Assembly (NCBI RefSeq): GCF_016863435.1
Contig: NZ_BOOW01000041.1
Coordinates: 1-64,000 of the forward strand
Direction of reading: 5' to 3'
Source of the DNA: Sinosporangium siamense
GTDB taxonomy: Bacteria; Actinomycetota; Actinomycetes; Streptosporangiales; Streptosporangiaceae
DNA length: 64,000 nucleotides
Part shown: positions 18,918 through 47,986 of the stretch, one piece after another
Numbering within the stretch: position 1 is the stretch's first letter
Layout: each line of letters begins with the position of its first letter
Notes under the pieces: generated by a model
Databases searched by the model: none
Seen by the model: the letters and a program-made list of their open reading frames with translations, nothing else
Told to the model about the DNA's origin: nothing
Made by a program: the position numbers and the translations under genes

Positions 18918-21900
18918 TCAGAAGTTCCGGCCGTGCTCAGGAGCGCTGAGCCGACGAGGTAGCCCGCCGACCCACTCCCTGACCGCCTGGACCGTCGTCT
19001 CGGCGTGCTCCTCCAGCACCGTGAAATGGTCGCCCGGCACGTCGGCCGACTCGTGCGGCAGCGGCCAGAACGCGCGCCAGTCCAACCGGCCCGTAGGGTC
19101 GACGACGGTCCCGCGCAGCGGTTCCTCCGCGCGGATCACCAGGGTGCGCCCGCCGATCGGCCGGGGACGCCAGTCCGCGAGGATCCTTCCGTACCAGCCC
19201 ATCGTGGTGAGGCTCGCGTCGCTCCAGATCATCTGATAGCGCTCGATGCGCTCGACCATCCCGGTCAGCATCGCCTCAAGCCACCAGTCGCGCATGCCTT
19301 CGAGCGTCGGACTCTCGATCGGGTAGGTGTCGATCAGCGCCAGCCCTGCGGCGGGCAGGCCTCTGCTCTCCAGCTCCTCGGCCACCGACTGGGCGATGCA
19401 GCCGCCCATCGAGCGCCCGAGGATCGCGTACGGCCTGCCGCGCACAAGCCGTTCGACCGCGTCGGCCTGCATCCCGATGTAGGTCTTCTCGCTGTCCGGC
19501 AGCGACTCCTCCTCACGGTAGCCGGGTGAGGGCAGCACCCACACGTCGCGCTCGCCGCTCATGCTGTGCCCGAAGCGTGCGTATTCGTGCGGCCCGGAGA
19601 TCGCACTCACCGCGGGGAAGCACACCAGCGCGACCGCGCCGTCGCCCTCGGCCAGCCGGATCGGTTCCTTGGCGTGGGCGTCGGCCTCCTCCGGGCCGAA
19701 GCCGGTGCGCAGGTGGGAGGCCACACCGATGAGTTCGGCGGCGGCGGCGAACTGCCGCGCCCCGACCAGGCCGCGATAGAGCGTCGACAGCGGCCCGTGC
19801 CGCTCGTCCGGTGTCGCCCGCGGCCCCTCGTCGACGGTCTCCAGATCGCCGAGCGCACCCAGCAGGTAGCGGGCGAGGGCCGCCGGCGTCGGCTCGTCGA
19901 ACGTGACGGTCGCGGGCAGCCGCAACCCCGTGGCCGCGTTCAGCCGGTTGCGGAGTTCGACCGCCGCCAGCGAGTCGAGCCCGAGCTCACTGAACCCGCG
20001 CTCGTGGCCGATCGCCTCGGGTGTCGTGCCGAGCGAGACCGCCACCTCCGCGAGCACCAGGTCGAGCAGCACACCTTCCCGCCTGCCCTCTCCGGCCTCG
20101 CCGAGCCGCCGCAGGAGCGACGGCCCCGCCTCCACGGGCCGCGCGGCCCGCCGCCTGCCGCGCACCAGTCCGCGCAGCAGCGGCGGAAGCCCGTCGCCCT
20201 GCCGCCGGAACACCGCGAGGTCCAGCGGAGCGGGAGCCACAACCGCCCTCCCGGCGAGTTCCGCCCGGTCGAACAACGCCAGGCCCTCCGCCGTCACCAT
20301 CGGCCGCAAACCACTGCGTACGGCACGAGCCCGGTCGGCCTCGCTCAAATGCGCCGTGACGCCGGACGGCTCCGCCCACATGCCCCACACCAGCGACAAC
20401 GCCGGCAACCCCAGGCTTCGCCGATGCTCGGCCAGCGCGTCGAGGAAGGTGCTGGCCGCCGCGTAGTTCCCCTGTCCTGGACCGCCGAACAGGCCCGCGA
20501 GCGAGGAGTACAGCACGAACGCCGACAGATTCCGGTCCTTGGTGAGTTCGTGCAGGTGCCAGGCGGCGCCGGCCTTGGCGCGCAGCACCTCGTCGACGGC
20601 CTCCGGAGTGAGCGAGGTGATCAGGCCGTCGGCCACCACTCCGGCCGTGTGCACCACGGCGGTCAGCGGATGTGCGGGCGGCAGGGCGTCGATCGCCGCC
20701 GCCACCGCGTCCCGGTCCGCCACGTCGGCCTCGGCGAACCGCACGTCGGCTCCGAGTGCGGCCAGCTCGCCCTTGAGCTCCGCGGCTCCCGGAGCTCGCC
20801 CACCGCTCCTGCTCAGCAGGAGCAGGTGGCGCACACCTCGGGTGGCCACCAGATGGCGGGCTATCGCCGTACCGAGCACCCCGGTGCCGCCGGTGATCAG
20901 CACGGTGCCGTCGGGGGACCACGTCCACTCGTCATCCCCCGTCTGGGGCGCGGGAACGACGCGGGTCAGCCTGGGCGCGAGAACCCTGCCGCCGCGCACG
21001 GCCACCCGGGACTCCCCGGCCGCGAGAGCGGTGAGCGCGGCACTCGTCAGCTTGGACGTCGTCGTCTCCTGTTCGGCGGGGTCCAGGTCCACCAGCGTGA
21101 TGAGGCCCGGGTGCTCTGCCTGGGCCGAAAGCACCAGCCCCCAGAGGGAGGCGGTCGCCAGGCCGGGGCTCTCCCCGTCCGCCGCGGCCACCGCGCCCCG
21201 CGTCGCCACCACGAGTCTCGCCGGCTCCCGCCGCTCCCCCGTGAGCCATGTGCGCAGCCGGGCGAGCAGGTCGTGCACGCCGACGTGCGCAGCTGCGGGC
21301 AATTCCACATCCCGGGGTGGTTCGACCAGGAGAACGTCCAGGTCGGTATCGACCGCTGCCGGTCCGGACTGCTCGGGCACCTCCGTCCAGACGACCTCGA
21401 ACAGGGAGTCCTGGCCGGCCGCGCGGGCGGCGTTCACCTGATCGGCGGAGATCAGCCGGGCGCGCAGCGCGTCGATCGAGACCACCGACACACCCGTGCC
21501 GTCGGCCGCCTCCAGGGACAACTCCTCCGGCCCGCGCAGCGTCAGCCGTACCCGCAACTCGGTGGCACCTGAGGCGTGCAGCCGCACCCCGTCGTAGGCG
21601 AACGGCAGCCGGCTCCACCCCTCGGGTGTGTCGCGCAGGCCGTGGTGCGCCGCGATGTGAAGGGCGGCGTCGAGCAGCGCGGGATGCACGCCGAAGCGGG
21701 CGGCGTCCACGTGGTGGGCGGCGGGCAGTTCGACCTCGGCGTAGAACTCGTCACCTCGCCGCCAGGCGCGGGACAACCCTTGGAAGGCCGGGCCGTACTG
21801 GAGCCCTGCGTCGGCGAGCACCTCGTAGACGCCGTCCACGTCGAGTGGCTCAGCGCCGGTCGGCGGCCACTCTCCCCAGATCGGAGGGCTCTCACCACCG

Positions 21901-47400: not shown

Positions 47401-47986
47401 GGTTGACGCCGCCTGCGATGGCCAGGGTGGTCTCGCCGGTGCGGAGGCTCTCGCAGGCGAGGTGGACGGCGAGCAGCGACGACGACTGGGCGGAGTCGAC
47501 GGTGAGGCTGGGGCCGCGCAGCCCGAGCGTGTAGGAGACGCGGTTGGCGATGACGCCGCGGCTGAGGCCGGTCAGGGTGTGGCGGGTCGCGGTGCCGGCG
47601 CGGTGCAGCAGCAGGGCGTAGTCGGAGGCCATCGCGCCGATGAACACTCCGGTACGGCTGCCCGCCAGCGTGGCCGGGGGCAGTCCGGCGTCCTCCAGCG
47701 CCTCCCAGCCGAGTTCGAGGGCGAGCCGCTGCTGGGGGTCCATGGCCTCGGCCTCGCGCGGGGAGATGCCGAAGAACTCGGGGTCGAAGCCCGCGACGTC
47801 GTCGAGGAAGGCGGCGAAGCGGATGCCGGCGCCTTCGGGAGAGTGGGAGCGGTGTCCCGGCGGCATCTCCCTGATCGCGGACTCGCCTCGGTCGAGCAGG
47901 CGCCAGAATGCCTCGGGGTCGGGTGCGCCGGGCAGTCTGCAGGCCAGTCCGACGACGGCGACGCCTGCGGCTGTGGAACCGCTCAC
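38486..47986 (-). CDS. Type I modular PKS A: KSQ loading module plus fully reducing module 1
   Basis: About 3166 residues. Loading module: KSQ (about 5-420) with the active-site Cys replaced by Gln167 (DSAQSSS) but His kept (ELHGTGT); AT (about 532-839; RVDVVQP, GHSQGE, YASH, methylmalonyl); ACP (about 909-992). KSQ domains decarboxylate the loaded extender, here giving a propionyl starter. Module 1: KS (about 1002-1432; DTACSSS), AT (about 1549-1855; GHSVGE/HAFH, malonyl), DH (about 1902-2085; [17 protein letters not shown]), ER (about 2432-2725; [17 protein letters not shown]), KR (about 2732-2959; LDD, Tyr in GQANYAAAN), ACP (about 3009-3082) and a docking tail. It is the first PKS gene of the operon. 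GTG 47986 follows a GGGAAGAGG site and starts just before the KS. In-frame starts at 48025 and 48052 are alternatives. Confidence 0.94.

What the first reader, a model, noticed from the sequence alone, without database searches (positions are those of the whole stretch)
18918..47986. A compact, complete five-module PKS line predicting an unfamiliar C14 polyketide
Seen: all catalytic motifs intact in loading plus five modules, ending in a TE, with gene order collinear with transcription. Established: KSQ decarboxylation, and AT motifs HAFH (malonyl) versus YASH/RVDVVQP (methylmalonyl). Inference: propionyl starter; module 1 fully reduced; module 2 hydroxyl; module 3 enoyl; module 4 ketone with alpha-methyl; module 5 enoyl. 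This gives a 13-carbon chain plus one methyl, with 2-ene, 4-methyl, 5-oxo, 6-ene and 9-hydroxyl. I cannot match it to a known compound.
Basis: partly seen in the sequence, partly recalled or inferred. Interest (0 to 1): 0.7.

Follow-up and report, generated by a model that had tools for sequence, protein, structure and literature searches.

The report
Small polyketide line beside SAM riboswitch
A bacterial enzyme assembly line that should build a small 14-carbon molecule belongs to a family kept by many actinobacteria together with an uptake pump and two helper enzymes, and in this genome a predicted RNA sensor of SAM (activated methionine) lies just ahead of its regulator gene; the product is still unknown.

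Summary
On the minus strand at 48052-18918, four genes encode a KSQ loading module plus five cis-AT modules ending in a thioesterase (TE). The C14 chain prediction follows, with one caution: the last KR reads YAAAS where 12 of 12 readable relatives have Asn. It is not an isolated line. Seventeen complete clusters, window included, share one tail: KR-only, DH-KR, methylmalonyl-type without KR (17 of 17), then DH-KR-TE (16 of 17); the head varies. All 17 have an SDR, a SnoaL-like gene and an SBP5-type ABC importer alongside. One relative (Herbidospora pks-7) is already in print as an orphan. New here: a SAM-IV riboswitch lies ahead of the LuxR gene and PKS in the window and two relatives, and within about 25 kb of the cluster in 7 of 16 genomes (0.28 expected). 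Two genomes lacking this TE keep the SDR-SnoaL pair and an orthologous importer. Best reading: a SAM-gated polyketide, probably closed through its C9 hydroxyl and taken up again. Product, riboswitch action and uptake are untested.

The parts
51539..51675 (-). SAM-IV riboswitch aptamer ahead of the LuxR gene and PKS
   Evidence: RF00634, 75.7 bits against a gathering score of 38, model positions 1-116 of 116
51401..51508 (-). possible 35-aa leader ORF (46 aa from an earlier ATG) whose stop overlaps the LuxR GTG start
   Evidence: sequence read; coding status not tested
48555..51404 (-). 949-aa LuxR-family large ATP-binding (LAL-type) regulator
   Evidence: AAA_16 at 65-230 and GerE HTH at 890-941
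38486..48052 (-). PKS gene A: loading KSQ-AT(methylmalonyl type)-ACP; module 1 KS-AT(malonyl)-DH-ER-KR-ACP
33594..38489 (-). PKS gene B: module 2 KS-AT(malonyl)-KR(YAPGN, LDD)-ACP; sets the C9 hydroxyl
25124..33661 (-). PKS gene C: module 3 KS-AT(malonyl)-DH-KR-ACP; module 4 KS-AT(methylmalonyl type)-ACP with no KR
18918..25082 (-). PKS gene D: module 5 KS-AT(malonyl)-DH-KR-ACP-TE
20451..20453 (-). Ser codon AGC in the module 5 KR (YAAAS); Asn in 12 of 12 relatives where the motif was read (3 unread, 1 without KR)
18948..19712 (-). terminal TE, nearest solved relative the DEBS TE
18101..18877 (-). SDR oxidoreductase, 258 aa
   Evidence: a homologue alongside the cluster in 17 of 17
17585..18022 (-). 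SnoaL-like protein (cyclase/isomerase fold), 145 aa
   Evidence: PF07366; nearest solved chains are putative polyketide cyclases, TsrD, AclR, SnoaL, IdmH and AknH; Asp of the PDR motif in 32 of 33 aligned copies
17139..17588 (-). second SnoaL-fold protein (SnoaL_4), 149 aa
   Evidence: PF13577; in 11 of 17 clusters
15367..17031 (-). ABC importer solute-binding protein (SBP_bac_5), NikA-like
13582..14442 (-). ABC importer permease
   Evidence: PF00528. A second permease probably lies between this and the SBP gene (ORF 14450-15682); that ORF was not searched
11600..13735 (-). ABC importer ATPase, two ABC_tran stretches in one protein

Best explanation
This is a canonical cis-AT modular PKS operon of a Streptosporangiaceae-type actinomycete. 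Shown by sequence: the domain order, a SAM-IV aptamer ahead of the LuxR gene, and the conserved company of an SDR, a SnoaL-like protein and an SBP5 importer. Established rules then predict a propionyl-started chain, 9-hydroxy-4-methyl-5-oxotrideca-2,6-dienoyl-ACP (C14). Inferred: the DEBS-like TE releases it, most likely by closing onto the C9 hydroxyl to give a 10-membered lactone (C14H20O3, 236.14 Da by hand) or as the free acid (C14H22O4, 254.15). In every complete cluster the KR-only module sits exactly three modules before the last, while what lies upstream of it varies, as expected if this hydroxyl is the ring nucleophile and the head is only a side chain. Inferred: SDR and SnoaL-like enzymes act on the invariant C1-C9 segment, the riboswitch ties the regulator to the SAM (methionine/sulfur) supply, and the SBP5 importer takes the product or a derivative back up.
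For: Domains and motifs. In 17 complete clusters the tail KR(YAPGN/YAPDN) | DH-KR | GxSQG-type AT without KR is 17 of 17, final DH-KR-TE 16 of 17; the head ranges from no extra module to several. SDR, SnoaL and an SBP5 importer in 17 of 17 (for G087 the SBP). Co-occurrence of TE (E <= 1e-70) and SnoaL (E <= 1e-18) orthologues: both in 19, TE only 1, SnoaL only 2, neither 323, of 345 order genomes; with TE E <= 1e-65, both in 18, TE only 0, SnoaL only 5, neither 371, of 394 class genomes. SAM-IV: 75.7 bits in the window; directly before a LuxR gene and the PKS in G023 and G025, start codon 10 nt after the aptamer; within about 25 kb of the cluster in 7 of 16 genomes, 0.28 expected for a 90-kb span, Poisson P 2e-8. 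TE nearest to DEBS TE. LuxR of G023 and G025 is 47-52% identical to the C-terminal half of the window LuxR, with a 76% stretch at the HTH of G025.
Against: No product, expression or binding data. M5 KR has Asn to Ser, so C3 may stay oxidised. G446 (and partial G665) end in KS-AT-ACP-TE without KR/DH, so the 2-ene is not universal; the two Nocardia loading ATs are not of the GHSQG/YASH type. Of the 7 linked SAM-IV sites only 3 precede LuxR; 3 precede an SBP5 transporter and 1 (G446) precedes an aminotransferase V gene about 19 kb from the cluster. By whole-genome search no SAM-IV lies by the cluster in Herbidospora, two Nonomuraea, G318, G083, G087, G221 or G388; two Nocardia upstream pieces were also negative, their other pieces and genomes were not searched. 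No SAM-IV lies in the stretches read around the SDR-SnoaL or importer genes of the PKS-free genomes. In the window 134 nt and a possible leader ORF separate aptamer and LuxR start. The group-b SBP5 (40-43%) is less like the window's than some paralogues elsewhere are (45-49%), so the importer was either recruited twice or diverged. The leader folds no better than shuffles (z 0.60). The Poisson estimate treats related genomes as independent.
Confidence: 0.5

Rival explanations
1. The product is a six-membered pyranone, not a macrolactone: the C5 oxygen (enol, or hydroxyl after SDR reduction) attacks C1, giving a 5-methyl-6-alkenyl-2-pyranone or its 5,6-dihydro form.
For: The C4-methyl/C5-ketone module is invariant in 17 of 17; G446 would deliver a 3,5-dioxo chain, the usual pyrone precursor.
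Against: Would not explain why the KR-only module three before the end is invariant; the LDD/VDD-type KR motifs predict E alkenes by established rules, while this closure needs Z; the TE resembles macrolactonising DEBS TE.
Confidence: 0.15
2. The M5 KR is crippled by Asn to Ser, so the window strain makes a 3,5-dioxo-4-methyl product (4-hydroxy-2-pyrone or diketone), as G446 is predicted to.
For: YAAAS in the window, Asn in 12 of 12 relatives where the motif was read; G446/G665 lack KR and DH in the last module altogether.
Against: The Tyr, Ser and nucleotide motif of the KR and both DH motifs are kept; the ORF is intact. Whether Ser tolerates catalysis was not tested.
Confidence: 0.12
3. The SnoaL-like protein is a carbon-carbon cyclase: the dienolate carbon C2 adds to enone carbon C7 (vinylogous Michael), giving a 2-methylcyclohexenone carboxylate that can lactonise with the C9 hydroxyl.
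For: Asp of the PDR motif kept in 32 of 33 copies; nearest solved chains include the cyclases SnoaL, AknH and IdmH; the C5-C7 and C9 functions needed are the conserved ones.
Against: The His of the GHSIS stretch is not conserved; the protein scores 37.1 against a cutoff of 200 for the SnoaL methyl ester cyclase model; no structure or assay.
Confidence: 0.12
4. Ordinary orphan antibiotic cluster; importer and SAM-IV are regulon neighbours without a role in the product.
For: SBP5 transporters follow SAM-IV sites elsewhere too, in G388 and S. griseoruber contig C22; G388 carries TetR and a DHA2-type MFS efflux gene in the cluster, a typical antibiotic arrangement.
Against: Importer beside the cluster in 17 of 17, including inverted and divergent arrangements; SAM-IV linkage 7 of 16 against 0.28 expected.
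Confidence: 0.2

Closest known systems
Herbidospora cretacea pks-7 (PMC4599437, orphan cluster)
   Same: Same four-gene layout, six KS, same M2-M5 and TE; recognised as L001/L043/L044 here by strain, gene sizes and domain order (scaffold numbers differ); TE 69% identical.
   Different: Its module 1 has no ER or KR (KS-AT-ACP, KS/AT/DH/ACP in the paper), and its genome's one SAM-IV lies on another contig. The paper's text, of which I read four of five parts, treats PKS and NRPS genes only.
Erythromycin DEBS thioesterase
   Same: Best-scoring solved relative of the TE (5e-46), aligned over query residues 20-261 of 275.
   Different: DEBS makes a 14-membered ring from a seven-unit chain (recalled); here ring size is only inferred.
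SAM-IV riboswitch (RF00634)
   Same: Full-length match with the conserved core letters.
   Different: The strongest copy precedes a class V aminotransferase gene in the window genome and in G446 by Pfam, and a protein with a like N-terminus in six other genomes looked at; here a second copy precedes a LuxR regulator and a PKS.
Akaeolide and indanomycin pathways (modular PKS with SnoaL-like cyclase)
   Same: Modular PKS plus SnoaL-like protein: akaeolide Orf8-525 (passage of PMC4306953); IdmH matches by sequence, its indanomycin context is recalled.
   Different: Different chains and tailoring; no SBP5 importer or riboswitch was mentioned in the passages seen.

Membership tests
cis-AT modular type I PKS | KS-AT-ACP in every module with optional KR/DH/ER, ending in TE | tested here: met
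   M5 KR YAAAS instead of YAAAN; others intact
KSQ propionate-loading module | Gln for Cys in KS and methylmalonyl-type AT | tested here: met
   VDSAQSS and YASH/RVDVVQ in the window; Gln read in 15 of 17 clusters, 2 unread
Herbidospora pks-7 family (named here) | tail KR | DH-KR | methylmalonyl-type without KR | DH-KR-TE plus SDR, SnoaL, SBP5 importer | tested here: met
macrolactone-forming TE | Ser-Asp-His stretches of the DEBS-like TE | tested here: met
   sequence alignment only; triad positions in DEBS are recalled
macrolactone-forming TE | forms a macrolactone | not testable with these tools
   needs assay or product
SAM-IV riboswitch | covariance score above gathering threshold | tested here: met
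   75.7 against 38
SAM-IV riboswitch | binds SAM and controls the downstream gene | not testable with these tools
   needs probing and transcript data
SnoaL methyl ester cyclase subfamily (NF033407) | score above curated cutoff | tested here: not met
   37.1 against 200; only the Pfam SnoaL fold is claimed
NikA nickel-binding SBP (TIGR02294) | score above curated cutoff | tested here: not met
   219.4 against 393; only SBP_bac_5 membership is claimed

The most novel reading that the evidence does not exclude
A 'thiolophore': under low SAM the riboswitch-gated operon makes and releases an electrophilic dienone polyketide that captures thiols outside the cell; the dedicated SBP5 importer brings the adduct back, and SDR plus the isomerase-fold SnoaL proteins trigger release of the sulfur compound. 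Genomes that lack this PKS but keep importer and SDR-SnoaL would be pirates, as with siderophores. The evidence (SAM-IV linkage, conserved electrophilic tail, invariant importer, PKS-free genomes keeping SDR-SnoaL and importer) does not exclude it; nothing shows thiol capture, and no SAM-IV lies near the genes read in the PKS-free genomes.
Probability: 0.05. Interest if true: 0.92.

Novelty: new variant of a known kind. Interest (0 to 1): 0.5.

Why it matters
The chemistry machine is ordinary, but a polyketide family with a fixed tail, a variable head, a constant importer and a SAM riboswitch ahead of its regulator did not appear in the paper listings I could search. If the coupling is real, it gives a direct and testable link between methionine/SAM supply and polyketide production, and a natural case in which apparent non-producers keep the uptake and processing genes. 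It also suggests a simple culture condition (methionine or sulfur limitation) for waking a cluster whose TE occurs in 20 of 345 genomes and 10 of 70 genera of one order.

Tried and rejected
Saccharothriolides (10-membered macrolides of Saccharothrix, structures recalled only vaguely) were considered because the closest homologues printed for two of the four Herbidospora pks-7 genes are from Saccharothrix espanaensis. The passages seen mention saccharothriolides without structure or cluster (PMC12187902), and passages of the S. espanaensis genome paper (PMC3469384) name three type I PKS clusters without module detail, so no link is claimed. Products of Herbidospora daliensis and Acrocarpospora punica were checked in outline and abstract only: triterpenoid, azaphilone/phenanthrene and diterpenoid types. 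Paper searches for the cluster or a matching product: (listings, apart from the papers named). For SAM-IV with polyketide or LuxR; three papers hold SAM-IV, riboswitch and polyketide together, judged from titles and abstract starts only. Of the 37 loci, 8 are the close relatives; 22 others were scanned (L005, L007-L023, L036, L026, L030, L034) and none showed the SDR-SnoaL-importer set, though L007 has weak permease and SBP matches (23-33%) and L017 a 31% SDR; the remaining 7 were not scanned. ASpks RNA hits inside KS coding sequence were set aside as likely coding conservation. A metal-carrier reading was considered because the SBP is NikA-like; kept only as a weak idea since the cutoff is not met. 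The leader fold gave no excess stability. No structure prediction was run.

Rows dropped or unread: some motifs were not read by the pattern (KS of the loading module in G023 and G388; KR motif of the last module in G318, G083, G087, and others marked '?'). G313, G074, G067, G330, G077 and most of the class genomes were only partly covered by fetched contigs and are not among the 17 complete clusters. G067 was left out of the tree because its SnoaL frame breaks. In one search G087's short SBP match was dropped, and S. griseoruber's SAM-IV-linked SBP was not found by the tblastn, though it is SBP_bac_5 by Pfam. Listings do not print all genomes without a match, and one search does not print all matches.
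Full report
WHAT IS THERE. The PKS lies on the minus strand. Four genes, 48052-38486, 38489-33594, 33661-25124 and 25082-18918, encode a KSQ loading module and five extension modules with a terminal TE. Alignment of the six KS, six AT, four KR, three DH and six ACP domains shows the expected catalytic residues, except in the module 5 KR, where YAAAN is YAAAS (codon AGC at 20453-20451). AT motifs give methylmalonyl for the loading module and module 4, and malonyl for the rest. 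The KRs read LDD, LDD, VDD and VAD, B type by established rules, which predicts E alkenes.

SURROUNDINGS. Downstream in the same direction follow an SDR (18877-18101), a SnoaL-like protein (18022-17585), a SnoaL_4 protein (17588-17139) and an ABC importer with a NikA-like SBP5 protein, a permease and a double ATPase (17031-11600). Upstream lies a 949-aa LuxR-type regulator with an AAA_16 ATPase domain (51404-48555), preceded by a SAM-IV riboswitch (51675-51539, 75.7 bits).

FAMILY. A scan of public genomes with the TE gave 37 loci, among them eight close ones (50-74%) in two Acrocarpospora, Herbidospora cretacea, two Nonomuraea, Streptomyces griseoruber and two Nocardia. The window genome is put in one family with genomes that match the Acrocarpospora, Herbidospora and Nonomuraea records by size and coordinates, so it is probably a Streptosporangiaceae member (inference). 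I read complete clusters in 17 genomes, the window included. In 17 of 17 the module three before the last is KR-only with the motif YAPGN or YAPDN, the next is DH-KR, and the next has a GxSQG-type AT and no KR. In 16 of 17 the last module is DH-KR-TE; in G446 it is KS-AT-ACP-TE (partial G665 agrees). The head varies: a fully reducing first module in eight (the window, both Acrocarpospora, S. griseoruber, G023, G025, G388 and G446, the last two with further modules); a minimal one in Herbidospora; none in eight (both Nonomuraea, both Nocardia, G318, G083, G087 and G221). So evolution varies the side chain and keeps C1-C9.

COMPANY. SDR, SnoaL-like gene and an SBP5 importer accompany the PKS in 17 of 17 (G087's SBP), SnoaL_4 in 11 of 17. 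Gene order is not fixed: in Nocardia and the G083-type clusters SnoaL, SDR and importer are inverted; in G446 the importer is divergent and upstream, as it is beside a loading module on a G651 contig. In 345 genomes of the order, TE orthologues (E <= 1e-70) occur in 20 and SnoaL orthologues (E <= 1e-18) in 21, 19 of them shared. TE only: G313. SnoaL only: G031 (7.7-kb contig) and G322 (no PKS in the 20 kb fetched). In 394 genomes drawn from the class the numbers are 18 (E <= 1e-65) and 23 with 18 shared. Of the five SnoaL-only ones, G651 has the PKS with a TE just under the cutoff, G519 is a 4-kb contig, and G405, G420 and G658 have SDR-SnoaL without any PKS domain in the 40, 35 and 18 kb fetched. 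A looser TE search finds only distant TEs (29-41%) in G405, G420, G658 and G322; these genomes do have other PKSs. G405 and G658 keep an importer 58-60% identical to the window's at another locus, which falls among PKS-linked importers in a tree; the SDR-SnoaL pairs of G405, G658, G420 and G322 fall among PKS-linked ones. In the order, SBP5 proteins at 64% or more occur in 9 genomes, all SnoaL-positive; one of them, G023, has a second, unlinked copy. The group-b importer is only 40-43% identical, less than some paralogues elsewhere (45-49%), so two recruitments or strong divergence must be allowed.

SAM LINK. In 18 genomes searched, 30 SAM-IV matches were listed. Sixteen of these genomes carry the cluster or, for G031, its accessory genes. 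Seven have a SAM-IV site within about 25 kb of the cluster: window, G023, G025, G012 and G014 (the two Acrocarpospora), S. griseoruber and G446; chance expectation 0.28 for a 90-kb span, Poisson P 2e-8, treating genomes as independent, which they are not. In G023 and G025 a 414/419-aa LuxR protein starts 10 nt after the aptamer and is followed by the loading module; it matches the C-terminal half of the window LuxR at 47-52%. In the two Acrocarpospora and in S. griseoruber the site precedes an SBP5 gene near the cluster; in G446 it precedes a class V aminotransferase, like the stronger SAM-IV copy of the window genome. The genomes of Herbidospora, both Nonomuraea, G318, G083, G087, G221 and G388 have SAM-IV sites only elsewhere. 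The stretches read around SDR-SnoaL and importer in G405, G420, G658 and G322 hold none.

HOW IT LIKELY WORKS. Shown by sequence: assembly order, extender motifs, aptamer, accessory genes. By established rules: the C14 chain. Inferred: ring closure through C9, because the C9-hydroxyl module is fixed relative to the TE and the TE resembles DEBS TE; tailoring by SDR and SnoaL (Asp kept in 32 of 33 copies); SAM-dependent control through LuxR; uptake through the SBP5 importer. That genomes without this PKS keep SDR-SnoaL, and in two cases the orthologous importer, suggests these genes act on something that can come from outside. This can mean signal processing, detoxification or scavenging; I cannot tell which.

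KNOWN OR NEW. The PKS is a normal cis-AT modular PKS and a published orphan orthologue exists (pks-7, PMC4599437; four of five text parts read). No product was seen in the paper listings searched. The combination with a SAM-IV riboswitch and a conserved importer did not appear in two searches (listings only); hence 'new variant of a known kind'.

Noticed in passing
window 2545-2727 (+): Cobalamin riboswitch (94 bits) at the start of a corrinoid/F420-0-type ABC transporter binding protein gene (ORF 2682-3770).
   Followed up: no
window 27305-27379, 37329-37403, 43946-44020 (+): Rfam ASpks 'antisense sRNA' matches opposite the PKS genes; such hits appear in 10 of the 13 relatives' stretches scanned, so they look like coding conservation rather than an RNA.
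   Followed up: partly
window 9193-9279 and 13085-13158 (-): Two tRNA calls lie inside protein genes (histidine kinase and ABC ATPase) and are probably false.
   Followed up: no
window 51515-51630 (-) and L074:7504-7625: The aptamer stretch CUCCAC (window) or CCUCAC (G023) is complementary to the ribosome-binding-like stretch GUGGAG or GUGAGG just downstream, differing together in the two genomes; a possible expression platform, read by eye.
   Followed up: partly
window 5733-7127 (+): P450 resembling pentalenene oxygenase (below the model's cutoff), away from the PKS operon.
   Followed up: no
L119:5603-8069 (G388): In this relative a TetR regulator and a DHA2-type MFS efflux gene sit between SnoaL_4 and the importer, suggesting export or self-protection.
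   Followed up: partly
L135:4733-5674 (G318): A SAM-IV site precedes a glutathione S-transferase-type gene followed by an SBP5 importer; SBP5 genes also follow SAM-IV in G388 and on S. griseoruber contig C22.
   Followed up: partly
G446 cluster (L113, L114, L128, L129): Relative with seven extension modules whose last module lacks KR and DH, predicted to deliver a 3,5-dioxo chain.
   Followed up: partly
G000 contigs C35 and C40: The window genome carries other large modular PKS clusters, with open frames up to 9778 aa.
   Followed up: no
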